Shown here: positions 35,421 through 64,000 of the stretch, in pieces | Position numbering within the stretch: position 1 is the stretch's first letter | Layout: the number at the start of each line of letters is the position of its first letter | Assembly (NCBI GenBank): GCA_003433295.1 | Contig: CP016202.1 | Coordinates: forward strand, 514,993 to 578,992 | Length of the DNA: 64,000 nt | Origin: Eubacterium minutum ATCC 700079 | Lineage (GTDB): Bacteria > Bacillota > Clostridia > Peptostreptococcales > Anaerovoracaceae | Direction of reading: 5' to 3' | The notes under the pieces: generated by a model | The model's input: only the letters and a program-made list of their open reading frames with translations | Database searches by the model: none | What the model was told of the DNA's origin: nothing | Made by a program: the position numbers and the translations under genes

Positions 35421-37268
35421 TCAATACGCGCGGCAGCGGATCATGCCCGACCATGCTCCGTACTTTTTCTTTCCGGAAACGCGTTTATACGCTCGCACTC
35501 TTATGCGGTATCCGGTCCTTCTCTTGAGTTTTAATTTTTTTATGGAAACGTATGTCTTGCGACATGTTTTGTACTTCCATTTCTTTTTTCTTTTTTCTTT
35601 GAATGCAAGTACGTATCCGTCGGCATTGTCTGTTTTTCTCCATTTGATGTAAAGCCTGCCGTTTTTTCTATTCGTTCGGATCCCCTTGACCTTGTCTATC
35701 TTAAATTTTTTGAGAGTATCCGGTGTTTCTCTTTCGCTTTTTTTATAATCGCCAGAAGGTCGGTTTCCCGGGAAGCCTTGATTCGAATTCCCCGACGGTG
35801 GATTCGTGTCGCTCTTAGGCGGGATCAAAGGATTGTCCGGTTCGCCGATAGGGGGTGGTGCCGGTGGATCTTCCGGTTCAACCACCGGGGGTTCTTCGTT
35901 TTTCTTGATTATCTCCTCCAGTTCTTTTATCGCCGCGCCCTTTACCTTTCGCACATTTTCAAGCGTTTCACATCCATTTATAGCTGTTTTCCACTTTTCT
36001 ATCGCTGTTTTCAGTTTTTCTTTCTTTTGTCCTGAATATTTGTCGGGATCATATGCAGCCAACGCCTCCAGCGCTTTTTTCTTGGCTTCATCGAGAAGTT
36101 TCTGATCTTCCGGCGGTTTCTCCACCTTCTCCACCTCATCTATCTCCCGCTTCGCTTCCTCCACAAGATTACGCACAGTTCCGACATTACCCGCCGAGTC
36201 TATCTTTGCATATGCACCGGCCAGGATATCATTTATTTTGTCCTTATTTTCGTCCGTATACATACTAAAATCAACATACCCGGACAGTTCGCGTTTTGCA
36301 TCTTTTTTTGCCGCTTTAAGTCTGCCCTCCTCAGGTTTAAAAGTATCTTTGACAGTAATTACGGAAATAGGAGGCGCAGCAACAAACGGATTATTGTTTG
36401 CCTGATTCAGAAATGTCGGAAATCCCGGACCCGCCGACACGTAATAAGTCCCGGGTTCACTGAAATACAATGTCACATATCCGTTTTCATCCGTTTTTAT
36501 ATTTTGAGGTTTCCAACTCCTGCCTTGATCGTTGCTTATTCTTACTTTTTCTCCCACGACCGGCAGAGCCTCATTCTGTCCGCCGTTAATATTTTCCTGA
36601 GTTCCTATCTTGCTTAATTTGAGGCGGAAGTCCTCCCCTACATATGTCGTATGTGTCGTCTTGTCAAAGTTGAGAAACGCTCCGTGATGATAGAATTCCC
36701 AGTCGCTGAACATTGCCAGATCTATCTCATCACCGTCCTCAAGGAGTATATAATCGGCGGTCGATCCTATCCCCTTAGCCATCAGCGGATATTTATGATT
36801 GACGAAGTACATAAGGTTTTCATCGTGACCCCAGAAGTGTTTCATGTACATGTGGCATGCTGTCTGGGTGACATCTATGATTTCGGAATGAACATCCTCC
36901 TTTGTCAGTTTGGAACCTTTGTAATACTGCTCAAGCATCCTTATGTATAAATGCAGCAATGTAGGTCGCTTGATCAGCTCCGAATCTTTTATATATTCCC
37001 CGCCCTCTTCAAACGGCTTGTTGTGAAGTCTGTAAAACTTTTCAAGTCCGTAATCTTTGAGATCAAAATAATCTATTTTGACAGGCAGGTACGCTATAGG
37101 CGTTCCGTTCACCGGACTTTTCACAAAATCTCCGTCATCACTTATGCTTATATATACGGTGACCGATTCGCCATCTTCCGCCGAAACCGACACAGTGGCC
37201 GAAACTCCAACGATGAACAACATTACGATCGCCAAAAGCAGTATTTTTATTTTTTTTAATCTAAACAT
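35421..37268 (-). CDS. Secreted DUF4430 (transcobalamin-like) surface protein with FnIII-like tail
   Basis: A 615-residue exported protein. Signal peptide 1-30 (KIKILLLAIVMLFIVGVSAT). Residues about 35-190 resemble DUF4430, the fold of the C-terminal domain of transcobalamin and intrinsic factor: YFVNHKYPLMAKG then LLEDGDEIDLAMFSDW. Then a beta-rich carboxypeptidase-regulatory-like module (NIKTDENGYVTLYFSEPGTY), two helical repeats (320-455), a Pro-rich linker (455-510) and a Lys/Arg-rich fibronectin-III-like C-terminus ending YGAWSGMIRCRAY. No LPxTG or SLH motif. It is last in the same-strand series below a B12 riboswitch, which fits corrinoid binding; that function is inference. ATG at 37268 with AGGAG 9 nt upstream. 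Confidence 0.75.
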   Translation of the reverse strand: MFRLKKIKILLLAIVMLFIVGVSATVSVSAEDGESVTVYISISDDGDFVKSPVNGTPIAYLPVKIDYFDLKDYGLEKFYRLHNKPFEEGGEYIKDSELIKRPTLLHLYIRMLEQYYKGSKLTKEDVHSEIIDVTQTACHMYMKHFWGHDENLMYFVNHKYPLMAKGIGSTADYILLEDGDEIDLAMFSDWEFYHHGAFLNFDKTTHTTYVGEDFRLKLSKIGTQENINGGQNEALPVVGEKVRISNDQGRSWKPQNIKTDENGYVTLYFSEPGTYYVSAGPGFPTFLNQANNNPFVAAPPISVITVKDTFKPEEGRLKAAKKDAKRELSGYVDFSMYTDENKDKINDILAGAYAKIDSAGNVGTVRNLVEEAKREIDEVEKVEKPPEDQKLLDEAKKKALEALAAYDPDKYSGQKKEKLKTAIEKWKTAINGCETLENVRKVKGAAIKELEEIIKKNEEPPVVEPEDPPAPPPIGEPDNPLIPPKSDTNPPSGNSNQGFPGNRPSGDYKKSERETPDTLKKFKIDKVKGIRTNRKNGRLYIKWRKTDNADGYVLAFKEKRKKKWKYKTCRKTYVSIKKLKLKRRTGYRIRVRAYKRVSGKKKYGAWSGMIRCRAY

Positions 37269-37329
37269 CGCCACTGTCTCCTCTCATTAATTTCCGAAAT
37301 GTTCGCACTGTCCGATGCATGTCCGGCAG

Positions 37330-37415
37330 GCTCCGGAGGTTCATGGTTACGTGTAAATGAACCTCCGGATTCATGAGCGGGCATGTCGGTACACATGATG
37401 TAATAAGTCCGACGT
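37330..37415. repeat. Cloverleaf repeat element, copy B (degenerate)
   Basis: Arm 1 is perfect: CCGGAGGTTCAT (37332-37343) and ATGAACCTCCGG with a 12-nt loop. Arm 2 is eroded (TCATG/CATGA). Arm 3 keeps AATAAGTCCGACG but its partner is lost, and the closing stem is not recognisable. It lies between the third large paralogue and the DUF4430 gene, inside the presumed operon. Confidence 0.75.
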
Positions 37416-37440
37416 TGAATTTATTTTTTTCAGGCGCCGT

Positions 37441-40400
37441 TTATCTGCACTTAACTTTTTTAGCTGTCGTCCAGCCGCCGTATTCAGTCGAACCGTTCAC
37501 TTTTCCGACGGCACGAACCTTGAAGTAATAGTATTTGTTCTTTTTCAGTTTTCCGGTCTTCACTCTCGTCGCTTTAACAGTCTTAAGTCGTTTGTAGCTC
37601 TTGCTGCCTTTCTTCTTGTACGCTATCTCGTACATCACGGCATTTCCGTTCTTTTTCCAAGTAAGAACAAAGGCTCTTTTTACTCGCTTTATCTTAAGTC
37701 CCGCTATTTTCAAAGATTTTTTTCTGTTCGCTTTCTCGTTCTCGGTTGTATTCCCCGTCTTATCGCCGGCAGGTGTCTTTACAATCGGATTTGCTTTGTC
37801 CGTCGGTTTTGCCAACGGATTTGTGATTGCCGTGTTTTTGTCGGCTTTGATTTTATCCACTTCACCCTGCAGTTTTATGAGTTTTTCCATGATCAGCAGA
37901 TTGTTATAGGTGTATACATCTTTCTTCTGCTTATCGTTCAGCGCGTCATAGGCTTTTCTAAGGGCTTCGACATCCTTGACCTTAACTTCATCTTCAGAAC
38001 TCAGTTTGTCGATTTTCTCCGCCAAGTTGAAGCCTTTCCCGTTTTCTTCAGCCTGTACAAGTTTTTCCACATTTGTAACATACGTTTTTGCGTTCTTGGA
38101 AAGTTCTTCATAACTCGCTCTCGCCTTTACGACGTCGCTGTAATTTTCTCTTGTGACTTCTTCAGGCAATGCATTGAACAGATTTTCAACTTCCTCTGCC
38201 TGTGCCCGCTCTTCCACCGCATCACCCGAGCCCTTTACAGTCAGGTGTATATACTTTATGGACGGCGCAGCCTTGCCTTCCTGTGTTATGATCCTGAGCA
38301 TCTTCTTGTCAGGCAGACCTTCATAGTTACGGGTTTTGGCTCTCTGATTGTTAATGTATACGTTAGCATCAGCTCCCGCTTCGACGTTCACGTCATAAGA
38401 TTTGTCTGAATCCAAGACTACGTTGTAAACATCCCTGTCCTCGCTGACATTGAGTTCTTTGCCGGCAATCGTAATCTTAGGATCCGCAGTCTTTCCAAAG
38501 TCTTCTTTCTCTTCGGAAGTTCTGCTTATGCATGAGATCTCGGTCGATTTTTCGCCGATTGCTCCCGCTCCGATAAACGATGCAGTTTGAACTTTTACGT
38601 AGTGAATCTTAAGTTTGCTCGAGTCTACCGGATTCCCGTCCTTGTCTACGGCCCACTTAAGGTCGAATCCGTCTCCGTATCCGTCATATCCGCTTACATA
38701 CGGATTCCCCACGGGAACTTCATAGAGGTTAACATCTTCTCCGGTGCCCGCTACGGTGCTTGAATTTCTGTGAGTATCCACGTACCCGAACGCAGGCAGA
38801 CGTGCGGAACCGTTTTCAAGACCTTTGTTTTCAGGTACCGATGAGCCGAAAACTCTCGTTCCGGTAAACGTTATGGCTTTATCCTCGCCCTCCTTCCAGT
38901 CGTAGAGCGGATACCATTTTTTATCCGGCATGCTGTAGGAAGTTCCGGCAAATCCCACGCCCAGCGTATCCTTGTTCCCGAGATTGTCCTCATAATCGGC
39001 AACTTTGCTGTTAGGGTTCTTCTTATACGTAACAGAGTAATCCCACATGGTGGTGCTGTCATAATGATCGGATCCTGCAAGAGAATACCATTTCTTTCCG
39101 TCCTCGGATACCAGCACATTTCCGGGTTCTGAAAAACCTTCGCCGCCGTTGCTGTTTCCGAATACTGTAAAATCGATCCCATACGGGTGTTTCGGATCAT
39201 CGGTAATCGCTTTATCGTATTTCAGGGTCATGAACCCTCCGAAATTTCCGAGCGAAATGCAGGTGTACCAGTTTCCGGTTCCCATATTTATCTTTTCAGG
39301 GAAGATCCCGAACGTTCCCCAGCCCTGATTTCCGCCCGATGTGTACTGGCTTCCCGGGCACATGTATCCGACAACGGAATCATGTACACCTTTCAATGTA
39401 CCTTTTGTCGTACCGACCTTATAAAATTTGAACTTGAATTTACCGGTAGCCACTTTTTCTCCTTCTCCCGTGCTTACCGCTATTGTGTGTGCTTCGGTAC
39501 TTCCCTGATCTTTCAGCGGAGTTTTTGTTTCAACCGTGTACAGATCATTTCCGTCTTCATCTTCGCCCGACGGCTTAAGCAGGTTCGCATCGTCCACACT
39601 TCCTTTATACAGTTTCGCTCCTTTTTTAACGTGATACGTGATTACAGCGTTCTCCGTATTATGCGCCACAACTGCAGCGGACTCCGTATATCCGGGCGCC
39701 CATTTAGGCGAGCACCATGTAAGACCTTCTCCCAGATCGACTTTCTTGATATTTGCCAATCCCAAAGACTCCGGATTAGCGTCAACTCTGTTGATCGTAA
39801 CCTTATACGTCTTGGACGCATTTGCAAACGGATCCGCATCCGGATTTTCTTTTTTGCTCTTCTTGTACGATGCATCCGATACGCAGCGTATCAGCACTTC
39901 CGAGGAATTGCTTTCAGGAATGCTCACTTCATCCGTGGTCGTGTTGCCCACATTCTCTTTCCATGTGTTTCCGCCATCCGTTGAATATCCTATATGTCCG
40001 GTTGTATAATCCTGCGGTGTTGCCGTCACCTTTACCTTTGTTATATCGCTGAATACAAACACTTTATAATCTGTAACCGGCGACCAGCTCGAAAATCTCG
40101 GCGACAGTGCTCCTTCTGTCTGTCCGTTATATTCTGTCTGAGACGGCTCTCTGTCAACTGTGGTAACACCGATGCTCCTTATACCTTCCTGGGTCTGGTA
40201 ACCTTTAACGATTTTAAACGTGTAAGTGCTGTCCTCGCCCTTTCCGTCCGTTGAAGACGCCTTCACGACTATTTTATTTTCACCCGGCTCCAGGGTCGTT
40301 CCGATTTCCTTTCCGGACTCCATATTCACGGTATTGTCGCCATTCTTCAGTTCCATCTTGACTTTCTTGTCATCAAAAACCGCCCCCAGTCTCATCTGAT

Positions 40401-41766
40401 ATGTATTACTGTTGACATAATAGGTCTTCTCGCTCTCATCGGCAATCGAAAAGAAATGCGCCTTTACGGCTTTCATCTCTTTGTCGAGATATTTTTCAGT
40501 GAGTTTCAGCGGTTTTTTGTATCCTTCATCCTCATAGACCTGCATGCCTATCGAGGTGTAGAATTTTGTGGGATAAGCTTTATCCGGCTTGACCACGTGA
40601 ACTTCATAAACCGCCGTATAATCGGCATTTCCGTCCTTGTCGGTATCCCATTCAGCCTTTATGACAGCTTTTCCGGTTTTAACACCTTCCACAAGTCCGG
40701 TGTTTTCACCGACCTTTACGACCTCTGTATCGTCGGTCTTCCATGTTATCTCATCAGCCTTGACGCCTTTGCCGGTAAGCTGCAACGTTTTACCCTGCTC
40801 TACAATACTTTCATTGACCGTACCCTGCGGATCCGTCACATAGAACCCTTTTACCGTTAATTCCGTCGTTACTTTATTTTCATCGTTGAATCTGTCCTTT
40901 GCCGTTATCGTGACCTTTCCCGGCGCTTTCGGATACAGACCGCAATAACTTTTATCTTCAAAATCAAGATCTATTATATCTTTTTGCTCCGTCGAGTAGT
41001 CCACTATCTTATAGTCATTGTACTGACCCGGGGACACCTGAAGATAAGGTGGGATAGTCCCGATTATTCCGTTTTCCGGGATCTGCACGGTTGTAGGATT
41101 TTTCCCCCATCCCATTTTCGGAAGCACATAGACTTCAATCTTCCCCGTGTTCTTGTTGTGAACCGAGCTTGCGGTAAAGGTGACATATTCCGCATTTTTC
41201 AGATCTTCGGGCGGAGTAACCACTCCGTCTTCGTCTATGGCAAAGCCTGCCTTGTTGGATGTCCATTTCACCTTGGCACTGCTGCCTGCAGGCTCCGGCA
41301 CGGCTTTCAGCCTGAAAGTCTTTTCTTTGCATCCCGCGGTAAAGAAATTTACCCCGCTTTTGCTCTTGTTCACATTGCCGTCCGCAACCTCAACTGTGAG
41401 CTTTTCGGGCGGTGCCGCTTTTTCCACATAGACATAGCAGCTGGCTTCCGCCCCCTTATAATTTGCGGTAATCTCCGCGATTCCGGCCTTGAGTGCTTTT
41501 ACCTCTCCCTTTTCTACGGTCGCCACTTTTTTAGGCGATGATGACCACTTGACATCGTCGAGGTTGCCGCCCTCGGGCGTAATCGTCGCTTCCAGCTTTA
41601 CGGTCTCTCCCGTTTCCAGATTGAGAATTTTCTTGTCCAACTTTATGCCGGCCTCTCCCTCGGCATAGGTCGAATTGACCATCATAATCATCGCCGCCGC
41701 GAGCATGATCGCCAAAACTACCGCGACACGGGACATTGTTCCCTTGCCAAAATAACTTTTTCTCAT
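37441..41766 (-). CDS. Giant Ig-like surface protein, paralogue C
   Basis: A 1,441-residue secreted protein, third of three tandem paralogues. Signal peptide 1-35 ending TYAEG. Big2-type Ig domain 37-115 (AGIKLDKKILNLETGETVKL), more Ig-like domains to about 395, cadherin-like sandwiches about 400-690, a central block about 700-1085 with CPGSQYTSGGNQGWGTFG, YGIDFTVFGNSNGG and WYSLAGSDHYDSTTMWDYSV, another sandwich to 1180, a helical segment 1194-1299, and a basic FnIII-like tail 1349-1441. Function is not known from sequence. No LPxTG or SLH. AAGGAGAAAAAG precedes the ATG. A hairpin separates it from paralogue B. Confidence 0.88.
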   Translation of the reverse strand: MRKSYFGKGTMSRVAVVLAIMLAAAMIMMVNSTYAEGEAGIKLDKKILNLETGETVKLEATITPEGGNLDDVKWSSSPKKVATVEKGEVKALKAGIAEITANYKGAEASCYVYVEKAAPPEKLTVEVADGNVNKSKSGVNFFTAGCKEKTFRLKAVPEPAGSSAKVKWTSNKAGFAIDEDGVVTPPEDLKNAEYVTFTASSVHNKNTGKIEVYVLPKMGWGKNPTTVQIPENGIIGTIPPYLQVSPGQYNDYKIVDYSTEQKDIIDLDFEDKSYCGLYPKAPGKVTITAKDRFNDENKVTTELTVKGFYVTDPQGTVNESIVEQGKTLQLTGKGVKADEITWKTDDTEVVKVGENTGLVEGVKTGKAVIKAEWDTDKDGNADYTAVYEVHVVKPDKAYPTKFYTSIGMQVYEDEGYKKPLKLTEKYLDKEMKAVKAHFFSIADESEKTYYVNSNTYQMRLGAVFDDKKVKMELKNGDNTVNMESGKEIGTTLEPGENKIVVKASSTDGKGEDSTYTFKIVKGYQTQEGIRSIGVTTVDREPSQTEYNGQTEGALSPRFSSWSPVTDYKVFVFSDITKVKVTATPQDYTTGHIGYSTDGGNTWKENVGNTTTDEVSIPESNSSEVLIRCVSDASYKKSKKENPDADPFANASKTYKVTINRVDANPESLGLANIKKVDLGEGLTWCSPKWAPGYTESAAVVAHNTENAVITYHVKKGAKLYKGSVDDANLLKPSGEDEDGNDLYTVETKTPLKDQGSTEAHTIAVSTGEGEKVATGKFKFKFYKVGTTKGTLKGVHDSVVGYMCPGSQYTSGGNQGWGTFGIFPEKINMGTGNWYTCISLGNFGGFMTLKYDKAITDDPKHPYGIDFTVFGNSNGGEGFSEPGNVLVSEDGKKWYSLAGSDHYDSTTMWDYSVTYKKNPNSKVADYEDNLGNKDTLGVGFAGTSYSMPDKKWYPLYDWKEGEDKAITFTGTRVFGSSVPENKGLENGSARLPAFGYVDTHRNSSTVAGTGEDVNLYEVPVGNPYVSGYDGYGDGFDLKWAVDKDGNPVDSSKLKIHYVKVQTASFIGAGAIGEKSTEISCISRTSEEKEDFGKTADPKITIAGKELNVSEDRDVYNVVLDSDKSYDVNVEAGADANVYINNQRAKTRNYEGLPDKKMLRIITQEGKAAPSIKYIHLTVKGSGDAVEERAQAEEVENLFNALPEEVTRENYSDVVKARASYEELSKNAKTYVTNVEKLVQAEENGKGFNLAEKIDKLSSEDEVKVKDVEALRKAYDALNDKQKKDVYTYNNLLIMEKLIKLQGEVDKIKADKNTAITNPLAKPTDKANPIVKTPAGDKTGNTTENEKANRKKSLKIAGLKIKRVKRAFVLTWKKNGNAVMYEIAYKKKGSKSYKRLKTVKATRVKTGKLKKNKYYYFKVRAVGKVNGSTEYGGWTTAKKVKCR

Positions 41767-41803
41767 CTTTTTCTCCTTACTTAATAATAAAATTTATTCC
41801 ACC

Positions 41804-41834
41804 GCCGTCATGTCCGGTGCTCAGACATGACGGC
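41804..41834. other. Intercistronic hairpin between paralogues B and C
   Basis: GCCGTCATGTC (41804-41814) and GACATGACGGC (41824-41834), an 11-bp perfect stem with a 9-nt loop. No strong T-run follows on the minus strand, so it is more likely an RNA stability or processing element than a full terminator. Confidence 0.6.
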
Positions 41835-41891
41835 AGGTTTGAATACTCACTCTGCAGCACTTGCAAAATTCCGACGCGGATATCTTGTCAT

Positions 41892-44800
41892 TTACATGCA
41901 CTTACCTTTTTTGGCTTTTGTCCAGTTGCCATAATACGTCGTTCCGTTCACTTTTCCGACGGCACGAACCTTGAAGTAATAGTATTTGTTCTTTTTCAGT
42001 TTTCCGGTCTTCAGTCTTGCCGTTTTAACGGTCTTAAGTCGTTTGTAGCTCTTGCCGCCCTTCTTCTTGTACGCTATCTCGTACTTCCCGGCATTTCCGT
42101 TCTTTTTCCAGGTAAGAACAAAGGCTCTCTTTACTCGCTTTATCTTAAGTCCCGTTACTTTCAAGGATTTTTTTGCGCTCGCTTTCTCGTTGTCGTTTGT
42201 ATTCCCCGACTTATCGCCCGCAGATGACTTTACGATCGGATTGGTCTTGTCCGTCGGCTTCGCCAACGGATTTGTGATTGCCCTGTTCCTGTCGGCTTTG
42301 AGTTTGTCCATTTCATCCCGCAGCTTTATGAAGTTCTCCATTATCAACAGGTTGTTATAGGTGTATACATCTTTCTTCTGCTTATCGTTCAACGCATCAT
42401 AGGCTTTTCTGAGAGCTTTCACATCCTCAACCTTGATATTATCTTCAGAACTCAGTTTGTCGATTTTCTCCGCTAACGCAAAGCCTTTTCCTCTTTCTTC
42501 CGCCTGAACGAGTTTTTCCACACTTTTTACATAGGCTTTTACGCTATTGGACAGTTCTTCATATGCCGCCCTTGCCTTTACGATGTCACTATAGTTTTCT
42601 CTCGTGACTTCTTCCGGCAACGTATCGAACATACCTTCAACTTCTTCCGCCCGTGCACGGTCTTCCACCGCATCGCCCGATCCCTTTACAGTCAGGTGTA
42701 TATACTTGATGGACGGGGATGATTTCCCTTTCTGTGTTATTACTCTTAAAATCTTTTTGTCGGGCAGACCTTCATAGTGACGAGTCCTGCTTCTCTGATT
42801 GTTTATATATACGTTCGCATCCGCAGCTGCATCCACGTTCACATCGTAAGATTTATCGGAGTCCAAGGCGACATTGTAAACGTCTTTATCTTCGCTTATA
42901 TTGACCTTTTTCCCTCCGACGGTAATTTTCGGATCTTCGGTTTTTCCAAAGTCCTCTTTCTCCTCGCTTGTTCTGCTTATGCACGATATCTCCGTGGATT
43001 TTTCACCGATCGCACCCGCTCCTATAAACGATGCGGTCTGGACTTTCACATAATGGATCTTGAGTTTGCTTGAATCCACCGGATTTCCGTCCTTGTCCAC
43101 AGCCCACTTGAGATCGAAGCCGTCTCCATATCCGTCGTAACCTTCCATATACGGATTCCCCACGGGAACATCATACAGATTCACGGATTCTCCGGTTCCC
43201 GCAACAGTTTTACCGTTCACATGCGTGTCCACATATCCGAATGCGGGCATCAATGCCGAACTGTTTTCAAGACCCTTGTTTTCAGGTACGCCCATACCGA
43301 AGACTCTCGTTCCGGTAAAGGTAATGGCCTTATCTTCTCCTTCTTTCCAATTATAGAGCGGATACCATTTTTTATCAGGCATGCTGTAGAAAGTTCCGGC
43401 AAATCCCACACCCAATGAACCCGCGTTTCCAAGGTTATCCTCATAGTCGGCGATCTTACTTTTCGGGTTCCTCTTATATGTTACGGAATAATCCCACATG
43501 GTGGTGCTGTCATAGTGATCGGATCCCGCAAGTGAATACCATTCCTTTCCGTCCTCGGATACCAACACGTTTCCGGGTTCTGAAAATCCCTCGCCGCCGT
43601 TGCTGTTTCCGAATACGGTAAAATCAATACCATACGGATGTTTCGGATCGTCGGTGATCGCCTTATCGTATTTCAAAGTCATATATCCGCCGAATTGACC
43701 GAGGGAAATGCAACTGTACCAATTTCCCGTTCCCATATTTACCTTTTCAGGGAATATTCCGTATGTGCCCCAGCCCTGATTTCCTCCCGAGGTGTACTGA
43801 CTGCCCGGACACATGTATTCAACGATGGAATCGTGAACGCCTTTCAACGTGCCTTTGGTTGTACCGACCTTATAGAGGTTAATGCTAAATCTGCTCGTAG
43901 CGGTCTTTTCACCTTCTCCGGTTACAAGTATGATATTTTGAGCTCTTACGCTGCCTTGATCCTGCAACGGAGTCTCCGTTTCCGCCGTGCACAGGTCATT
44001 TCCTTCTTCATCCTTACCGGAAGAATGTACAAGGTGCTGATCATCGACCCGTTCATTATACAATTTAGTTCCCGGCTTCACGTGATATGTGATCTTCGCC
44101 ACATCAGTGGTATGACCCACGACCGCCGCGGACTGAGTATATCCCGGCGACCACTTAGGCGAGCACCACGTAAGTCCTTCTCCCAAATCAATTTTTTTGA
44201 CATTTCCCAGCCCCAAATCTTCGGAACTTACATCAAGTCTGTTGATCGTAAGGCTATATGTCTTTTTTGCCTTTTCAAACGGATCCGCATTCGGATCCTC
44301 TTTTTTGATCTTCCTGTAGTAAGCATCCGATACACAGCGGAATAATACCTCCGCGGAATTGGTTGCAGGTATTTCAATATCTTCCGTTTCAGCGATTCCC
44401 TGGACTTCCTTCCACGTGTTACCACCGTCCGACGAGTATCCGACATGTCCGGTGTAATTATCCTGAGGTATCAGCTTAACCTTCACCCTCGTTACATCTT
44501 TAAACACAAACGAAGTATAGTCGGTTTGAGGTGAATACGCCGAAAATCCCGGTGAAATACTGCCCTCCTTTTTATTATTATACAAAGTCAGTGAAGTGTC
44601 TCTGTCCTGTGGCAAAACCTCAATATTCCCCATTCCGTCATTCTTCGAATATCCTCTGATAATCGTATAATGATACGTAGTTTTCTCGCCTTTTCCATCT
44701 ATAGGCGCAACTTTTACGATCACCTCGTTATTCCCTGTCCTCAGTTCCGCATATGTTCTTTCCCCGGAGTACATGCTTTCAGTTTTATCTCCGCACTTCA

Positions 44801-46271
44801 GCTCCGCCTTTACTTTCTTGTCATTGAACAGAGCTACAAACGGAAGCTTATCGTTATTGGTGTATTCCAGATAGTAAACCTTATTGCTGCCATCTGCAAT
44901 TGAAGTAAATGCACCTTTCTTGGTTTTAAATCCTTTCTCCGTATACTTCTCAACGTCATCGGCTATCTCTTTATATTCAGGATCTTTATATATATGATTA
45001 TTAGAATAGTACTCTGCCGGATCCGGGATATACAGTTTCGCGGGATACGCCTTATTTTTTTTGAGTACATTTATCTCATATTCCGCGGTATATTCACTCT
45101 TCCCGTCTTTATCGGAATCCCATTCAGCCTCCACTTTCGCTACGCCGGATTTCAAGCCTTTCACGATCCCCGTTTTCTCGTCGAGCTCTATGATTTCCTT
45201 GTCATCGGATTTCCACGTAATTTCATCCTTTTCCATCCCTTTTGCAGTCAATTGCAACGTTTCTCCCTCTTCAACGCTGCTCTCGTTCAACGTGCCGGCA
45301 GGATCCGTTATATAAAAACCTTTGACTTCTATCTCCGTGGTTATCTTATTCTCAGGATTAAACTTATCTTTGGCCGTTACAGTAACTTTGCCCGGTTTTT
45401 GGGGATGGAGCTCGCAAAATTCCCTGTTTTCGGCGTCTGTGGCAGTCTTGACATCCAGTACAGCTCTGGGCTTCGCTGAATATTTCATAATTCTCCAATT
45501 ATTGTAATCCAAAGGCAACACCCTGAGTTGCAATGAATCTTTTCCAAAAACCCCGTTCCTCGGTACTTCCAGCAGGTTCTTCGGTTTCTCCCAACCACTT
45601 ATTTTCGGAAGAAAATAGATTTCGGTGGATCCGCTTACCGCATCGCCATCCTCCTCATCCTTATGAACGGACGTTGCGGTAAAAGTCACATCTTCCGCTG
45701 TTTCTATCCGATCGGGAAGAGTAATAACACCGTCCTTGTCTATTTTGAAATTCTCGTTGTCCGATTCCCATTTCACCTTGGTGCTGGCACCTTCAGGGTC
45801 TGCAACCGCTCTCAATTTTATGGTTTTATCCTCGAAGCCCACTGTAAATATTTCTGCACCAAAGACGGATTGATTTACATTGCCCTTCGCAACTTGAACA
45901 CTAAGTTTCTTGAGCGGTTTTACCTTTTCCACGTAGACATAGCAATGTGCCTCCGCGCCTTTATAACTTGCGGTAATCTCCGTGATTCCGGCGTTGAGAG
46001 CCTTGACTTTTCCCTTTTCCACAGTAGCCACGTTTTCCGACGACGATGACCACTTGACATCGTCGAGATTACCGCCCTCCGGCGTAATAGTCGCTTCCAA
46101 TTTTGCGGTCTCTCCCGTTTCCAAATTGAGAGTTTTCTTGTCCAACTTTATGCCGGCCTCTCCCTCGGCATAGACTGTGATAGCCGCCATAGTTATCATA
46201 GCCGCAATCATGATTGCCAAAACTATCGCGGTACGGAATGCTGTTTCCTTGCCAAAACAATTCTTTCTCAT
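41892..46271 (-). CDS. Giant Ig-like surface protein, paralogue B
   Basis: A 1,459-residue paralogue of the flanking genes with the same order: signal peptide (FRTAIVLAIMIAAMITMAAI, then VYAEGEAG), a first Big2 domain nearly identical to the others, variable Ig-like and cadherin-like domains (about 120-690), the conserved central block (CPGSQYTSGGNQGWGTYG, FTVFGNSNGGEGFSEPG), helical segment and basic FnIII-like tail. Variation concentrates in the N-terminal half after the first Big2 domain. The ATG at 46271 with AAGGAGAAAACG is used rather than one nine codons upstream. Confidence 0.87.
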   Translation of the reverse strand: MRKNCFGKETAFRTAIVLAIMIAAMITMAAITVYAEGEAGIKLDKKTLNLETGETAKLEATITPEGGNLDDVKWSSSSENVATVEKGKVKALNAGITEITASYKGAEAHCYVYVEKVKPLKKLSVQVAKGNVNQSVFGAEIFTVGFEDKTIKLRAVADPEGASTKVKWESDNENFKIDKDGVITLPDRIETAEDVTFTATSVHKDEEDGDAVSGSTEIYFLPKISGWEKPKNLLEVPRNGVFGKDSLQLRVLPLDYNNWRIMKYSAKPRAVLDVKTATDAENREFCELHPQKPGKVTVTAKDKFNPENKITTEIEVKGFYITDPAGTLNESSVEEGETLQLTAKGMEKDEITWKSDDKEIIELDEKTGIVKGLKSGVAKVEAEWDSDKDGKSEYTAEYEINVLKKNKAYPAKLYIPDPAEYYSNNHIYKDPEYKEIADDVEKYTEKGFKTKKGAFTSIADGSNKVYYLEYTNNDKLPFVALFNDKKVKAELKCGDKTESMYSGERTYAELRTGNNEVIVKVAPIDGKGEKTTYHYTIIRGYSKNDGMGNIEVLPQDRDTSLTLYNNKKEGSISPGFSAYSPQTDYTSFVFKDVTRVKVKLIPQDNYTGHVGYSSDGGNTWKEVQGIAETEDIEIPATNSAEVLFRCVSDAYYRKIKKEDPNADPFEKAKKTYSLTINRLDVSSEDLGLGNVKKIDLGEGLTWCSPKWSPGYTQSAAVVGHTTDVAKITYHVKPGTKLYNERVDDQHLVHSSGKDEEGNDLCTAETETPLQDQGSVRAQNIILVTGEGEKTATSRFSINLYKVGTTKGTLKGVHDSIVEYMCPGSQYTSGGNQGWGTYGIFPEKVNMGTGNWYSCISLGQFGGYMTLKYDKAITDDPKHPYGIDFTVFGNSNGGEGFSEPGNVLVSEDGKEWYSLAGSDHYDSTTMWDYSVTYKRNPKSKIADYEDNLGNAGSLGVGFAGTFYSMPDKKWYPLYNWKEGEDKAITFTGTRVFGMGVPENKGLENSSALMPAFGYVDTHVNGKTVAGTGESVNLYDVPVGNPYMEGYDGYGDGFDLKWAVDKDGNPVDSSKLKIHYVKVQTASFIGAGAIGEKSTEISCISRTSEEKEDFGKTEDPKITVGGKKVNISEDKDVYNVALDSDKSYDVNVDAAADANVYINNQRSRTRHYEGLPDKKILRVITQKGKSSPSIKYIHLTVKGSGDAVEDRARAEEVEGMFDTLPEEVTRENYSDIVKARAAYEELSNSVKAYVKSVEKLVQAEERGKGFALAEKIDKLSSEDNIKVEDVKALRKAYDALNDKQKKDVYTYNNLLIMENFIKLRDEMDKLKADRNRAITNPLAKPTDKTNPIVKSSAGDKSGNTNDNEKASAKKSLKVTGLKIKRVKRAFVLTWKKNGNAGKYEIAYKKKGGKSYKRLKTVKTARLKTGKLKKNKYYYFKVRAVGKVNGTTYYGNWTKAKKGKCM

Positions 46272-46305
46272 CGTTTTCTCCTTACTGATAATAAACATCT
46301 ATCCT

Positions 46306-46343
46306 ACCGCTTCCATGTCCACCATATGGTCATGGCAGGCGGT
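46306..46343. other. Intercistronic hairpin between paralogues A and B
   Basis: ACCGC and CCATG pair with CATGG and GCGGT around a 13-nt loop. It occupies the same relative position as the hairpin at 41804-41834 and shares the CATG core, suggesting it was copied with the genes. Confidence 0.5.
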
Positions 46344-46388
46344 TTTGAATCTCCTGCTACAACTCTCTCGTGCAGAAATTCCATCATC

Positions 46389-49300
46389 TTATGTGCACTT
46401 ACCTTTTTTAGTGCCTGACCAGTTGCCGTAATACGTTATTCCATTCGCTTCTCCAACGGCACGAACCTTGAAATAATAGTATTTATTCTTTCTAAGTTTC
46501 TTCGTTTTTACACGACAGGTTTTTACTTTCTTCAGTTTCTTGAAGTTCTTATTGCCCCTCTGTCTGTAGACGATCTCATAGGTTTTGCCATCCTTAACCT
46601 TTTTCCAGCTGAGAACAAATGCCCTTTTCGCTCTCTTGACCTTGAATCCGGTTATCTTCAAAACCGCTTTCTTTTCAACTTTGGCGCCGCCTGTTGCATT
46701 ACCCGTGGCAGGCGCTTTTATGCCTTCTTTCAATTTGTCGACAGGTCTGCCAAGAGGATTCACAATGGTTTTATCCTTGCCCGCTCCGATCTTATCCACT
46801 TCCGCCTGTAGCTTTATGAGTTTTTCCATTATCAGCAGATTATTGTAAGTGTATACGTCTTTCTTCTGCTTATCGTTCAGGGCATTATATGCTTTTCTGA
46901 GCGCTTCTACGTCTCCTGCCTTGACTTCATCCTTGGAACTCAGTTTATCAATTTCTTCCGCCAGAGCAAATCCCTTTCCTCGGTCTTCCGCCTGCGTGAG
47001 TTTCTCGATGTTTCTCACATAAGCTTTTGCGGTTTTGGACAGTTCTTCATATGTCGCCCTCGCCTTTACGATGTCACTGTAGTTTTCTCTCGTGACTTCT
47101 TCCGGCAATGCGTTGAACATACCCTCAACTTCTTCCGCCTGTGCCTGTTGTTCCACCATGTCGCCGGAGCCCTTCGTCGTCAGATGTATGTACTTGATGG
47201 ATGGTGCGGCTTTACCTTCTTGCGTTATGATTCTCAGCATCTTTTTGTCCGGAAGCCCTTCATAGTGACGTTCTTTTCCTCTCCGGTTGTTTATGTATAC
47301 ATTAGCATCCGAATCCGCATCCACGTTGACATCGTAAGATTCGTCGGAGTCAATGACAACGTTGTAGACATCTTTGTCTTCGCTTATGTTTACCTTTTTA
47401 CCCGCAACGGTGATCTGCGGATCTTCGGTTTTTCCGAAATTCTCCTCCTCGGATGTTCTGCTTATGCACGATATCTCCGTGGATTTTTCACCGATCGCTC
47501 CGCCGTTTATGAAAGAAGCTGTCTGAACCTTTACATAGTGAATCTTAAGTTTGCTCGAGTCCACAGGGTTTCCGTCCTTGTCCACAGCCCATTTGAGGTC
47601 GAAACCGTCGCCGTATCCGTCATATTTTTCCACATACGGATTCCCAACAGGAACATCGTATAGATTCACATCTTCTCCCGTTCCCGCGACAGTTTTACCG
47701 TTACTGTGTGTATCGACATACCCGAATGCGGGTAACAATCCCATGCCTCCATTCTCAAGACCTTTATCCTCAGTTACCGATGAACCGAAAACTCTCGTTC
47801 CGGTAAACGTTATGGCTTTATCTTCTCCTTCCTTCCAGTCATAGAGAGGATACCATTTCTTATCCGGCATGCTGTAGAAAGTTCCGCCGAATCCCACTCC
47901 CAAGGTATCTTTATTTCCGAGATTATCCTCATAGTCGGCGACCTTACTGTCCGGATTCTTTTTATATGTTACGGAGTAATCCCACATGGTGGTGCTGTCA
48001 TAGTGATCGGAACCGGCAAGTGAGTACCACTTTTCTCCGTCTTCGGACACCAGAACATTTCCGGGTTCTGAAAACCCTGCACCGCCGTTGCTGTTTCCAA
48101 ATATGGTAAAGTCTATACCGTAAGGGTGTTTCGGATCGTCGGTGATGGCTTTATCGTATTTCAAAGTCATATATCCGCCGAAGTTTCCGAGTGAGATACA
48201 GCTGTACCAGTTTCCTGTACCCATATTTACCTTTTCGGGGAATATTCCGTACGTTCCCCAACCTTGGTTCCCTCCTGAAGTGTACTGGCTTCCCGGGCAC
48301 ATATATTCAACAATGGAATCGTGCACACCTTTCAACGTTCCTTTGGTTGTCCCAACCTTATAGAAGTTCAACCTGAACTCTCCGGTAACAGTATCATCAC
48401 CTTGTCGGGTGACGAGTATAATATTCCGCGTCGTTATGCTACCCTGTTCCTGTAGCGGTGTATCATAATCCAGCGTATATATGTCATTACCTTCTTCATC
48501 CTTTCCCGACGGTGTAAGAAGATTTTCTTCTTTGACTTGAGTTTTATAAAACTTGACATCTCCTTTTACATGGTACGTGACCTTAGATTTTTCTGTATCA
48601 TGCCCTACAATCACCGCAGACTGAGGATAGCCCGGCGCCCACTCCGGGGAACACCATGTGAGACCTTCTCCCAAATCAATTTTCTTGATATTGGCAAGTC
48701 CTACAGTTTTAGGTTCTACATCTATTCTATTGATAGTCACCTTATAAGTCTTACTTGCATTCTCAAACGGATCCGCATCCGGGTTTTCTTTTTTAATTTT
48801 TCTGTAAGCAGCATCTGAAACACAGCGCATCAACACTTCCACGGAATTCACCTGAGGAATATTGATTTCTCCCGTTGTTATATTTCCTACCCTCTCATTC
48901 CATGTGTTACCTCCATCCACAGAGTAACTAATGTGCACTGAATCTTTATCCTTTGCCTTCGCTTTTACCTTCACCTTTGTTATATCATTGAATACAAACA
49001 CCTTATAATCTGTTTGAGATGAGTAAAACTGCGGCGACAAACCGCATTCCGCAATATTATTGTATTTCGCGGAAGATATTTCCCTATCCAAAGGAGTCAC
49101 ATCTATCATAGACAGCATATCAGAATTGGGATATCCTCTTACAATCGTAAAATTATACGTACTTTCTTCACCTTTTCCATCGCCGGAAAATGCTTTGACG
49201 ACTATTTTATTCTCTCCCACTTCCAGCTTGGTTTCCAAGGCTTTTCCGGATTCCATGTTGACCGTATCAGTCCCGTGCTTCAATTCCATTTTGACTTTCT

Positions 49301-50705
49301 GATCATCAAATATCGAACACAGCTTTACGTTAGTATTCCAATTTTCCACATAGTAAATTTTTTCGCTTTCATCACTTATAGGAAAGAAATGTGCCGTTAT
49401 GTTTCTTATTTTGCCATCTTTATTTATACACTTCACAGTATTGCTCAAAGGTTTCTTATATTCTTCATCTTCGTAAATATATTGAACTGCCGGTGCATAT
49501 AATTTTATGGGGTGAATCCCGTTCGGCTTAATTACATTAACTTCATAAACCGCCGTATAATCAACTGTTCCATCCTTGTCTGAATCCCATTCGGCTTTTA
49601 TAACGGCTTTCCCGGTTTTAAGACCTTCCACAAGGCCGGTTTTTTCTCCGACCTTTGCGACTTCTGTATCGTCTGTCTTCCATGTAATCTCATCCGCATT
49701 TACGCCTTTGCCCGTAAGCTGCAACGTTTTACCCTGCTCTACAATACTTTCATTGACCGTACCCTGTGGATCGGTTATGTAGAATCCTTTTACCGTCACT
49801 TCAGTTGATATTCTGTTTTCATCATTAAACTTATCTTGTGCCACCACGGTTGCTTTCCCCTGTACTTTGGGGTGTATAGCACAACCGGATACATTTTCAA
49901 AATCAAGCCCGACTATATCGTTTTGCTCCGTTGAATACTCCAACATCTTCCAATTATCGTATTCCTGCGGTGAAGCTTTCAATTGCGGAAAACCATTTGC
50001 CATAATGCCGTTCTCCGGAATTTTCACCGTCTCTTGAGTTACTTTCCATTGCATTTTAGGCAAAAAGTAAACCATGAAAGTCGATTTGGCATTATTATGG
50101 ATAGATGTCGCCGTGAAGACTGCAAATCCCGTCCTTTTCAATTCTTTTGGAGGTGTAACCACTCCGTTTTCATCAATTTTGACCTTCTCGGTATCGGACT
50201 TCCACTTAACCTTGTCACTGGTTCCATCAGGTTCTGCAACCGCTTTCAGTCTGAAGGTTTTATCCTTGCACCCTACTGTAAACGTATATCCTCCCTGTGT
50301 TTCATTCACATTGCCTTCCGCTACTTCAATGCTGATTTTTTCAGGCGCTTCCACCTTTTCCACGTAAACATAACAATGTGCTTCCACGCCTTTGTAACTT
50401 GCGGTAATCAGCGTGATTCCCGCCTTGAGCGCCGTGATTTCTCCCTTTTCCACAGTGGCCACTTTTTCCGACGACGATGACCATTTGACATCGTCGAGAT
50501 TGCCACCCTCCGGCGTGATCGTCGCCTCCAATTTTACGGTCTCTCCCGTTTCCAAATTCAGGGTTTTCTTGTCCAGCCTTATACCGGTCTCTCCCTCGGC
50601 ATAAACTGTTACACCCGCAATGACCATGACCACCGCGATCATGATCATTAAGATCGCCGCGGTATGTGATAATTTTCTCGCTTTATCAAAGTAAATTTTT
50701 CTCAT
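46389..50705 (-). CDS. Giant Ig-like surface protein, paralogue A (riboswitch-proximal)
   Basis: A 1,438-residue secreted protein, the first gene below the cobalamin riboswitch. Signal peptide about 1-37 (AAILMIMIAVVMVIAGVTVY, then AEGETG). Big2 domain (GIRLDKKTLNLETGETVKLE), further Ig-like and cadherin-like domains, central block with CPGSQYTSGGNQGWGTYG and WYSLAGSDHYDSTTMWDYSV, a helical segment, then FnIII-like tail ending YGNWSGTKKGKC. The tail carries more Arg/Lys substitutions than in B and C. Most likely cell-surface or wall-associated; a corrinoid-scavenging role is inferred from the riboswitch and the DUF4430 neighbour. ATG at 50705 has GGAGGAGAGAGTT. Confidence 0.88.
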   Translation of the reverse strand: MRKIYFDKARKLSHTAAILMIMIAVVMVIAGVTVYAEGETGIRLDKKTLNLETGETVKLEATITPEGGNLDDVKWSSSSEKVATVEKGEITALKAGITLITASYKGVEAHCYVYVEKVEAPEKISIEVAEGNVNETQGGYTFTVGCKDKTFRLKAVAEPDGTSDKVKWKSDTEKVKIDENGVVTPPKELKRTGFAVFTATSIHNNAKSTFMVYFLPKMQWKVTQETVKIPENGIMANGFPQLKASPQEYDNWKMLEYSTEQNDIVGLDFENVSGCAIHPKVQGKATVVAQDKFNDENRISTEVTVKGFYITDPQGTVNESIVEQGKTLQLTGKGVNADEITWKTDDTEVAKVGEKTGLVEGLKTGKAVIKAEWDSDKDGTVDYTAVYEVNVIKPNGIHPIKLYAPAVQYIYEDEEYKKPLSNTVKCINKDGKIRNITAHFFPISDESEKIYYVENWNTNVKLCSIFDDQKVKMELKHGTDTVNMESGKALETKLEVGENKIVVKAFSGDGKGEESTYNFTIVRGYPNSDMLSMIDVTPLDREISSAKYNNIAECGLSPQFYSSQTDYKVFVFNDITKVKVKAKAKDKDSVHISYSVDGGNTWNERVGNITTGEINIPQVNSVEVLMRCVSDAAYRKIKKENPDADPFENASKTYKVTINRIDVEPKTVGLANIKKIDLGEGLTWCSPEWAPGYPQSAVIVGHDTEKSKVTYHVKGDVKFYKTQVKEENLLTPSGKDEEGNDIYTLDYDTPLQEQGSITTRNIILVTRQGDDTVTGEFRLNFYKVGTTKGTLKGVHDSIVEYMCPGSQYTSGGNQGWGTYGIFPEKVNMGTGNWYSCISLGNFGGYMTLKYDKAITDDPKHPYGIDFTIFGNSNGGAGFSEPGNVLVSEDGEKWYSLAGSDHYDSTTMWDYSVTYKKNPDSKVADYEDNLGNKDTLGVGFGGTFYSMPDKKWYPLYDWKEGEDKAITFTGTRVFGSSVTEDKGLENGGMGLLPAFGYVDTHSNGKTVAGTGEDVNLYDVPVGNPYVEKYDGYGDGFDLKWAVDKDGNPVDSSKLKIHYVKVQTASFINGGAIGEKSTEISCISRTSEEENFGKTEDPQITVAGKKVNISEDKDVYNVVIDSDESYDVNVDADSDANVYINNRRGKERHYEGLPDKKMLRIITQEGKAAPSIKYIHLTTKGSGDMVEQQAQAEEVEGMFNALPEEVTRENYSDIVKARATYEELSKTAKAYVRNIEKLTQAEDRGKGFALAEEIDKLSSKDEVKAGDVEALRKAYNALNDKQKKDVYTYNNLLIMEKLIKLQAEVDKIGAGKDKTIVNPLGRPVDKLKEGIKAPATGNATGGAKVEKKAVLKITGFKVKRAKRAFVLSWKKVKDGKTYEIVYRQRGNKNFKKLKKVKTCRVKTKKLRKNKYYYFKVRAVGEANGITYYGNWSGTKKGKCT

Positions 50706-50795
50706 AACTCTCTCCTCCATAAGCAACATCAACCTTGCGCAATAACTTACTACTCTTGTGCGGACTCATAAACCCGAACATGAAGCATGGAGAGC

Positions 50796-50826
50796 AAATT
50801 AAAACTCCCTTCACAAACGAAGAGAG
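50796..50826 (-). terminator. Riboswitch expression-platform terminator
   Basis: Minus strand CTCTCTTC, short loop, GAAGGGAG (one wobble), then TTTTAATTT. It lies between the cobalamin aptamer and the first surface gene, as expected for B12-induced premature termination. Confidence 0.75.
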
Positions 50827-50884
50827 CTCTATGGGAAAAACGCCCGACAGTACGTGGCATACATTCTCACCTGACACTCTTCCG

Positions 50885-51052
50885 TTCGTCTTCTGACTCG
50901 GATTCAACCTCCACAGACCTTCTCAATTTCCGGTTTTGCAACATTTTCGTTTTGCGGCATAACCTTTCACCAATGGTTCTTCTGCTTCGTCATCCTTACA
51001 GCGGTTTCCCGTAGAGGATTTGCACCTCTTTCCGTTAACCGAAGAGAATATT
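50885..51052 (-). promoter_or_regulatory. Cobalamin (B12) riboswitch aptamer
   Basis: On the minus strand, in order: GGTTAACGGAAAGAGGTGCAA, then GTGCAAATCC (51017-51026) with its CCTCT partner, CCGCTGTAAGGATGACG (50988-51003), CCATTGGTGAAAGG (matching the CCACTGG..GGAAGG part) and at the 3' side GAATCCGAGTCAGAAGACG (50887-50905), the B12-box region. Order, spacing and length of about 165 nt match cobalamin riboswitches. The first GGGAA motif is changed to GGAAA. It precedes the three giant surface genes, with a terminator between, so ligand binding should switch expression off. Confidence 0.9.
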
Positions 51053-51077
51053 TAATTGCAAAAATCTTTGTAACTGT

Positions 51078-51106
51078 ATAGTACAGCAGTATGTAAAGAC
51101 TGTCAA
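51078..51106 (-). promoter_or_regulatory. Promoter of the riboswitch-controlled surface operon
   Basis: Minus strand TTGACA (51101-51106), 17 bp, TACTAT (51078-51083). The start site near 51071 would put the aptamer at the very 5' end of the transcript. 51107-51310 holds nothing I recognise. Confidence 0.65.
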
Positions 51107-54327: not shown

Positions 54328-54346
54328 ACCGTTTATCCCTTTCTGT

Positions 54347-58524: not shown

Positions 58525-58848
58525 TATCTCAGGGTCTGTGGTTGAAAATCCATGTCAGGTGCGGACGAAAGGATCCACGTAAACCGCAGGCATAAGCTTG
58601 CGACTATCATGGCGCACTCTAGGAGGTAAGTCCTCGGGTAAATCCCGACAAAGGCAAATGTGGGGGCAAAGACCAGGTCAGCCTGAGATAAAACAATGTG
58701 CGCGATCAACACGATTTCACGATCCGGTCATTACCGATTTTATATCGCGTAATGTGCATACAGTCGTAAATCGCGATTGTGCAACGAGGCGACATTCCAC
58801 AAACACAAACAACCACAAACATAATTAATATATTCATTGTCGCCTCAA
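58525..58848 (+). ncRNA. Structured non-coding RNA, possible raiA-motif RNA
   Basis: No protein is encoded. The plus strand has GTCAGGTGCGGACGAAAGGA followed by TCCACG, then several short perfect hairpins: CGCAGGCATAAGCTTGCG (58585-58605 area), GAGGTAAGTCCTC, CGGGTAAATCCCG, and later GAGGCGAC / GTCGCCTC around a 45-nt AC-rich loop. It has a promoter at 58490 and a strong terminator at 58849. The sequence style and the neighbouring hpf (raiA) gene suggest the raiA motif, but hpf is convergent rather than downstream, so the assignment is tentative. An SRP RNA was considered and does not fit. Confidence 0.55.
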
Positions 58849-59511: not shown

Positions 59512-59561
59512 ATGCATGCCTTCCTTTCCGGTTCGCAACGGCGAACCTCTTGTTTATTGAT

Positions 59562-63913: not shown

Positions 63914-64000
63914 CACAGACTCCTTTTTATTTCATAAAATCCTAAAATCAATTAATATCATCCCGGTACGATAAATTTCTTACGTATTTTCTAAGCTAAA

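What the first reader, a model, noticed from the sequence alone, without database searches (positions are those of the whole stretch)
35421..51106. B12-riboswitch-controlled tandem array of giant surface proteins plus a transcobalamin-like DUF4430 protein
A promoter, cobalamin aptamer and intrinsic terminator precede three paralogous secreted proteins of about 1,440 residues and a secreted DUF4430 protein, all on one strand with short gaps. Riboswitch logic means expression rises when cobalamin is low. DUF4430 is the fold of the transcobalamin/intrinsic-factor C-terminal domain. No transporter or biosynthesis gene is in the unit. The whole looks like a cell-surface corrinoid capture machine of a kind not described for Gram-positives as far as I know; the central block of the large proteins has no function I can name.
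Basis: partly seen in the sequence, partly recalled or inferred. Interest (0 to 1): 0.92.

Follow-up and report, generated by a model that had tools for sequence, protein, structure and literature searches.

The report
Gram-positive B12-catching surface proteins
A gut bacterium related to Hornefia carries, behind a vitamin B12-sensing RNA switch, three giant surface proteins that each contain a relative of the B12-binding domain known from Bacteroides, which suggests that Gram-positive bacteria also fish for B12 with surface proteins.

Summary
The riboswitch and the three tandem giants are real. Two nucleotide-loop contacts (Gln333, Asn399) are kept in 49 of 49 rows; the four ring contacts are not kept in the window, so binding is inferred. 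Gene 35421-37274 is not recognised as DUF4430. DUF4430 occurs at seven other places of the genome. In relatives the block is fused to DUF4430 in 54 of 80 loci and has a cobalamin riboswitch within 5 kb upstream in 29 of 66. The genome has B12-binding enzymes but no CbiG or FecCD match. Best reading: riboswitch-controlled surface cobamide capture. PMC8941943 already mentions BtuH homologues in three Firmicutes; the tandem giants, DUF4430 fusion and breadth are the new part.

The parts
51078..51106 (-). sigma-70-like promoter (TTGACA, 17 bp, TACTAT)
   Evidence: consensus match only
50866..51058 (-). cobalamin riboswitch aptamer (RF00174)
   Evidence: 45.1 bits, gathering 31.5; also found in the whole-genome search
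50800..50831 (-). terminator-like hairpin of the expression platform
   Evidence: 14-pair stem; same hairpin in MFE and centroid of the 91-nt fold
46389..50732 (-). giant surface protein 1: signal peptide (by eye), Big_2 domains, cadherin-like match, BtuH domain, weak FN3-like C-terminus
   Evidence: an ATG at about 50705 looks the likelier start
47454..48356 (-). BtuH-type domain of giant 1 (about aa 793-1093)
   Evidence: family profile to 8blw 4e-34 and 7biz 2e-29; fold Z 26.2 to 7biz_B
41892..46298 (-). giant surface protein 2 with BtuH domain (G000:C1:557952-558863)
37441..41766 (-). giant surface protein 3 with BtuH domain (G000:C1:553501-554412)
35421..37274 (-). secreted protein of 617 codons with an N-terminal domain of unknown kind; homologues follow the BtuH giant in Hornefia butyriciproducens, SUG1256 and UBA4966 (L053)
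   Evidence: no DUF4430 by Pfam, hhalign E 0.064
59591..63916 (-). giant protein with PQQ-like propeller, cadherin-like and Big_2 domains; probable further component: in two relatives a homologue lies in one same-strand run with the BtuH giant, the 35421-type protein and a DUF4430 protein
   Evidence: its own upstream neighbour, almost wholly beyond the window end, carries DUF4430

Best explanation
This is a cell-surface cobamide (B12 family) capture system of a Gram-positive anaerobe close to Hornefia (Anaerovoracaceae; genus inferred from nearest relatives). When cobalamin is scarce the leader RNA lets transcription run on (inferred from the aptamer class and the hairpin). Three long secreted proteins are then made; each carries a BtuH-type domain on an Ig-like stalk (homology and fold shown) that holds cobamides, using the conserved nucleotide-loop side (binding inferred). 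The cofactor is passed on to DUF4430 proteins and an ECF transporter encoded elsewhere in the genome (inferred from gene content and from neighbours in relatives), to serve B12-dependent enzymes such as the ornithine/lysine-type aminomutase. The 35421 gene and the propeller giant are probably partners with unknown roles.
For: BtuH homology: the profile of the three window blocks alone finds 8blw at E 1e-13 and no other PDB sequence at E up to 10; the 20-row profile finds 8blw at 4e-34 and 7biz at 2e-29 and no other at E up to 1. Fold: pLDDT 89.5; Foldseek's first three rows are 7biz_B, 7biz_A and 8blw_B; VIA Z 26.2 and 24.6, next entry 7.8. Gln333 and Asn399 of BtuH2 kept in 49 of 49 rows. Riboswitch at the head of the unit and, in relatives, within 5 kb upstream on the same strand in 29 of 66 usable loci. 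Neighbours in relatives: DUF4430 in 20 of 102 proteins scanned, ABC_tran 11, CbiQ 9, ECF S-component 7; one BtuR adenosyltransferase. Genome: CobS match, no CbiG match, no FecCD match; three B12-binding-domain proteins, one with aminomutase domains. The fourth BtuH copy lies in a locus with a DUF4430-type protein and an ECF S-component, behind an AdoCbl-like aptamer that is under its gathering score. The BtuH block is under stronger constraint than the stalk (dN 0.05-0.06 against 0.20-0.39, dS above 1 in both).
Against: The four ring-amide contacts of BtuH2 (His476, Tyr510, Trp511, Trp577) are not kept in the window block and are rare in the 49 rows, so the pocket differs and binding is not proven; a homologue of a binder need not bind (BtuK2 did not, BtuK1 did; PMC12751083, Results part 1 read). 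37 of 66 usable loci show no riboswitch match within 5 kb and 20 of 80 show no DUF4430 in or near the gene. The two closest relatives' operons have no riboswitch at gathering score or with model R1, only a 19.9-bit trace in Hornefia butyriciproducens. No transporter in the unit. For the ECF S-component in L011 the PDB search listed only 4hzu_S ('Predicted membrane protein') and 3p5n_A (riboflavin uptake protein), so its substrate is not shown to be B12; Pfam calls it riboflavin-type.
Confidence: 0.8

Rival explanations
1. The proteins are B12-regulated adhesins or matrix proteins: the BtuH fold has been turned to another ligand, such as a glycan, and the riboswitch only reports a gut niche.
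For: Ring contacts of BtuH2 are lost; below the BtuH structures the next fold matches are parts of sialidases (Z 7.8 and lower); Big_2, cadherin-like and FN3-like domains are common in adhesins (the last point is general knowledge).
Against: The fold match to BtuH stands far above these (26.2 against 7.8); the two nucleotide-loop contacts are invariant; neighbours in relatives include DUF4430, ECF and BtuR genes.
Confidence: 0.1
2. The system stores or withholds B12 (a surface sink in competition with other gut bacteria) rather than feeding an uptake route.
For: No transporter in the unit; three copies of the binder; very slow release reported for BtuH2 (PMC10404256, passages read).
Against: No CbiG match and three B12-binding-domain proteins, so the cell probably needs import; relatives have the gene beside ECF transporter genes.
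Confidence: 0.07
3. The gene 35421-37274 is a divergent DUF4430 (transcobalamin C-terminal type) that accepts cobalamin from the giants, as the first reader proposed (this concerns one part and can hold together with the best explanation).
For: hhalign pairs GHDENLMYFVNHKYPLMAKG...LLEDGDEID with the SGWMY-VNG...DGD motif of DUF4430; its homologues follow the BtuH giant in three relatives.
Against: No Pfam DUF4430 at E up to 1; hhalign E 0.064, probability 0.9%; not among the seven DUF4430 places of the genome; not hit by the local DUF4430 profiles at E up to 10; model unusable.
Confidence: 0.3

Closest known systems
BtuH (BtuH2, BT_1956, PDB 7biz) and the H-domain of BtuG1/BtuGH (PDB 8blw), Bacteroides thetaiotaomicron
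   Same: Homologous domain by sequence (E 2e-29 and 4e-34) and fold (Z 26.2 and 24.6); Ig-like domains N-terminal to it, as in BtuH2; cobalamin riboswitch; contacts Gln333 and Asn399 kept.
   Different: Secreted giants of a Gram-positive rather than outer-membrane lipoproteins; ring contacts not kept in the window; three tandem copies; DUF4430 and ECF genes as partners in relatives. btuB and btuG were not searched for.
EUBSIR_01285 of Eubacterium siraeum (BtuH homologue near a predicted ECF-like transporter), mentioned in PMC8941943
   Same: A predicted BtuH homologue in a Firmicute.
   Different: Known to me only from that sentence; its sequence was not compared here.
ECF-CbrT B12 transporter with its nrdJ-cbrS-cbrT-pduO cluster (PMC5997447, passages read)
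   Same: Gram-positive cobalamin uptake through an ECF transporter; ECF genes occur beside BtuH genes in relatives.
   Different: The passages read describe no surface capture protein; no ECF gene lies in the window unit.
Transcobalamin / intrinsic factor (DUF4430 in the C-terminal region; PMC4350170, passage read)
   Same: DUF4430 is a recurrent partner of the BtuH block (fused in 54 of 80 ORFs); one relative also has a squalene-hopene-cyclase-type protein with SLH domains beside a DUF4430-like gene.
   Different: The window's own giants and its fourth gene have no recognised DUF4430.
BtuG propeller (B. thetaiotaomicron)
   Same: A propeller protein is also in the Hornefia gene run.
   Different: The window propeller profile listed 24 PDB sequences of PQQ, BamB and dehydrogenase kinds, none named BtuG.

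Membership tests
BtuH B12-binding domain | Sequence homology to BtuH2 / BtuG1 H-domain | tested here: met
   hmmsearch E 2.1e-29 (7biz) and 4.4e-34 (8blw); E 1e-13 to 8blw from the three window blocks alone
BtuH B12-binding domain | BtuH C-terminal fold | tested here: met
   VIA Z 26.2, 2.6 A over 242 residues to 7biz_B; next unrelated entry Z 7.8
BtuH B12-binding domain | Ligand-contacting residues | tested here: inconclusive
   Gln333 and Asn399 in 49 of 49 rows; His476, Tyr510, Trp511, Trp577 not kept in the window
BtuH B12-binding domain | Binds cobamide | not testable with these tools
   Needs purified protein
Cobalamin riboswitch RF00174 | Aptamer above the curated score | tested here: met
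   45.1 against 31.5 bits
Cobalamin riboswitch RF00174 | Expression platform | tested here: inconclusive
   Hairpin at 50831-50800, z -2.77 for 91 nt; the tail is only modestly U-rich; whole leader z -1.18; no alternative antiterminator was shown
Cobalamin riboswitch RF00174 | Expression falls with cobalamin | not testable with these tools
   Needs RNA-seq or a reporter
DUF4430 (PF14478), gene 35421-37274 | Match to the family profile | tested here: not met
   No DUF4430 at E up to 1; not among seven DUF4430 places in the genome
DUF4430 (PF14478), gene 35421-37274 | Distant profile or fold similarity | tested here: inconclusive
   hhalign E 0.064; AlphaFold2 pLDDT 45.5 with 4 sequences
BtuG-type propeller, gene 59591-63916 | Sequence similarity to BtuG | tested here: inconclusive
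   24 PDB sequences listed, none named BtuG
BtuFCD importer in this genome | FecCD permease (PF01032) | tested here: not met
   0 matches in G000 (96% complete), present in 13 of 14 control genomes

The most novel reading that the evidence does not exclude
Gram-positive bacteria have their own multi-protein surface relay for cobamides: long stalked BtuH proteins catch the vitamin under riboswitch control, DUF4430 domains (the domain type of human intrinsic factor and transcobalamin) hold or hand it over, often within the same polypeptide, and an ECF transporter takes it in. The domain of gene 35421 and the propeller giant would be two further, undescribed cobamide-handling parts.
Probability: 0.45. 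Interest if true: 0.82.

Novelty: new variant of a known kind. Interest (0 to 1): 0.68.

Why it matters
Competition for B12 shapes gut communities, and surface capture proteins have been characterised in Bacteroides (PMC8941943, PMC10404256, PMC12751083). A homologous domain at 296 places of one genome collection, 67 of the best 80 from Bacillota by record title (my reading of the titles), fused to or near DUF4430 in 60 of 80, makes it directly testable how Gram-positives catch B12 and what DUF4430 does in bacteria. It also gives a likely function to part of many giant proteins of unknown role.

Tried and rejected
Filing 35421-37274 as DUF4430: not accepted. Its best Pfam hit, DUF4198 (E 2.3e-4), is under the curated cut-off. 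NCBIfam XopG hits to the giants (17.5 bits or less against a cut-off of 150) were taken as chance. CbrT for the ECF S-component of L011: not shown. BtuG for the propeller giant: not shown. Recent duplication or gene conversion as the reason for the 91-92% identical BtuH blocks: not favoured, dS in the block is 1.1-1.6; only the C-terminal FN3-like end of giants 2 and 3 looks recently homogenised (dS 0.21). A two-motif regex for the riboswitch was too insensitive and noisy (22 of 80 loci; 5 hits in shuffled sequence), so a covariance model was built; its RNAalifold structure has only 17 pairs, so it is mainly a sequence model with rough E-values. PDB search with the DUF4430 protein of L012 gave nothing better than E 0.15. 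The first genome-contig scan, with the three near-identical blocks, found nothing. I had read the 1,470-aa protein of L011 as DUF4430 by eye; Pfam does not list it, so it is not counted.

Rows dropped before counts: of 296 relatives the best 80 were kept by the tool. Of these 80, 11 had under 400 bp upstream and 3 came from contigs used to train the model, leaving 66. Several loci are short contigs, so a missing neighbour is not evidence of absence.

Full report
What is there. On the - strand between 51106 and 35421 lie a promoter-like site, an RF00174 cobalamin aptamer (50866-51058, 45.1 bits, gathering 31.5), a terminator-like hairpin (50831-50800), three paralogous ORFs of 1,447, 1,468 and 1,441 codons and one of 617 codons, with gaps of 90-166 bp. 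The giants have a signal peptide (by eye), two or three Big_2 domains, and weak cadherin-like and FN3-like matches; giants 2 and 3 are 66% and 71% identical to giant 1 over their length. The block at about aa 793-1093 is 91-92% identical. None of the eight flanking genes scanned is a transporter or a B12-biosynthesis gene.

The unnamed block is a BtuH domain. A profile of the three blocks alone found one PDB sequence at E up to 10, 8blw chain B, E 1e-13. That chain is BtuG1 of B. thetaiotaomicron, whose C-terminal extension is homologous to BtuH2 (PMC10404256, passages read); both domains of this fusion bind cobalamin when separated (PMC12751083, Results part 1 read). With 20 rows the profile found 8blw (4e-34) and 7biz, the BtuH2-B12 complex (2e-29), and nothing else at E up to 1. 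The AlphaFold2 model of 47148-48719 (49 rows, pLDDT 89.5) has as first Foldseek hits 7biz_B, 7biz_A and 8blw_B, and VIA-align gives Z 26.2, 2.6 A over 242 residues to 7biz_B, 24.6 to 8blw_B, and 7.8 for the next entry.

Binding residues. In BtuH2, Gln333 and Asn399 touch the nucleotide loop, and Tyr510, Trp511, His476 and Trp577 touch ring substituents (PMC8941943, section read). After aligning BtuH2 to the family profile, Gln333 and Asn399 are present in 49 of 49 rows; the other four are replaced in the window (G, G, P, A in the same order) and rare in the rest, for example Trp577 in 2 and His476 in none of 49. So the nucleotide-loop side is conserved and the ring side is not; binding is a strong inference, not a result.

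Selection. Between the three giants dN is 0.05-0.06 in the BtuH block and 0.20-0.39 in the two stalk regions, while dS is above 1 in both, or saturated. The copies are therefore not recent and the block has been held by selection in all three. Of 79 relatives' loci 3 show more than one BtuH match, and in one of these (L071) a single domain is split, so tandem copies are uncommon.

The fourth gene. 35421-37274 is not recognised as DUF4430: no Pfam match at E up to 1, hhalign E 0.064, model pLDDT 45.5. The hhalign pairing falls on a plausible motif, so a distant link stays open. Homologues follow the BtuH giant in Hornefia butyriciproducens (45% identity), SUG1256 (49%) and the UBA4966 contig L053 (34%). 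DUF4430 matches occur at seven places of the genome. One begins 8 bases beyond the window end, in a 427-aa gene next to the propeller giant 59591-63916. In H. butyriciproducens and SUG1256 the run is BtuH giant, 35421-type protein, DUF4430 protein of about 395 aa, propeller giant; in L048 a shorter BtuH protein, a DUF4430-type protein and a propeller homologue are adjacent. So the window probably holds a rearranged version of one system.

The rest of the genome. Three RF00174 matches are over the cut-off: the window one, one before a 179-aa DUF4430 protein (E 3e-18) and one before two giant proteins of unknown role (L013). An AdoCbl-like aptamer under its gathering score (34.2 against 50 bits, E 9e-4) precedes a fourth BtuH copy, which is followed by a protein without a DUF4430 match, a 649-aa DUF4430-type protein (weak, over the cut-off with its neighbours, family link) and an ECF S-component. 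A fifth, weak match (21.2 bits; R1 E 0.009) lies about 3.5 kb upstream of a DUF4430 giant in L143. Three further RF00174 places were under the cut-off and were not found again at gathering score or with R1. CobS has a match, CbiG and FecCD have none. B12-binding domains occur in three proteins: an 850-aa protein with lysine/ornithine-aminomutase domains, and two that I read by eye as lysine aminomutase and B12-binding radical-SAM type. This fits a corrinoid scavenger that imports without BtuFCD. The genome is 96.2% complete, so single absences carry some doubt.

Spread. In 148 genomes of the family, the window's included, 17 have the block; of the listed same-genus genomes G004 has it, G093 and G142 do not. 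The named scan found 296 relatives, of which the best 80 were kept: 67 Bacillota by title, also Propionibacteriaceae, Synergistaceae, Bacteroidales, Kiritimatiellae, Fibrimonadales, one archaeal MAG and one unplaced. Of 66 usable loci outside model training, 29 have a riboswitch match (E <= 0.01) within 5 kb upstream on the same strand, 21 within 1 kb; 37 do not. DUF4430 is fused into the BtuH ORF in 54 of 80 and is in the same ORF or within 6 kb in 60 of 80; by Pfam 16 of 27 scanned BtuH proteins carry it and 9 carry SLH domains. Among 102 neighbours DUF4430 occurs in 20, ABC_tran in 11, CbiQ in 9, ECF S-component in 7; one further neighbour is a BtuR adenosyltransferase. Against a simple picture: the two closest relatives have no riboswitch at gathering score or with R1, only a 19.9-bit trace in one.

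Novelty. PMC8941943 (Discussion read) notes three Firmicutes with predicted BtuH homologues, one near an ECF-like transporter, so a Gram-positive BtuH is not wholly new. Searches for cobalamin, riboswitch, surface protein, Bacteroides and BtuH, DUF4430 with cobalamin, BtuH with Firmicutes and cobamide, cobalamin riboswitch with surface protein, Clostridiales and DUF4430 (12 of 273 listed), cobamide uptake terms, DUF4430 alone and BtuH with BtuG, Gram-positive and riboswitch listed no title or abstract start that shows riboswitch-controlled BtuH giants or DUF4430 partners in Gram-positives; most of the listed papers were not opened, and the library covers open-licence papers only. I rate it a new variant of a known kind, interest 0.68.

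Noticed in passing
window 58525-58690 (+): raiA RNA (RF03072, 125.4 bits) beside a gene that reads like a hibernation factor (58984-59538, -; by eye).
   Followed up: no
L013 6962-15589: A strong cobalamin riboswitch (109 bits) heads two giant secreted proteins (1,126 and 1,576 aa) with InlB-type and aBig_2 repeats but no BtuH or DUF4430 match; their N-termini may hold another cobamide-binding domain.
   Followed up: partly
L129 2989-7376: Upstream of the propeller giant lie a DUF4430 protein, a transglutaminase/TgpA-like protein and a DUF58 protein; in L044 a MoxR-like ATPase (by eye) is near BtuH.
   Followed up: no
L075: BtuH homologue with fused DUF4430 on a contig labelled Candidatus Bathycorpusculum (archaeal MAG); could be a binning error.
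   Followed up: no
L101 12398-12967: BtuR/CobO adenosyltransferase inside a BtuH-DUF4430 gene run; genes of the same length (189 aa) sit at the same place in L102 and L118.
   Followed up: partly
window 52969-54387 (-): One gene with an N-terminal DUF2397 stretch and C-terminal DUF3323/DUF2399, near macro-domain and Schlafen AlbA_2 genes.
   Followed up: no
window 37441-46298, C-terminal ends of giants 2 and 3: FN3-like C-termini have dS 0.21 while the stalks and block are above 1, suggesting recent homogenisation.
   Followed up: partly
L060 6382-7674: A 430-aa protein beside the BtuH giant shows two partial BtuH matches, perhaps a BtuH domain with an insert.
   Followed up: no
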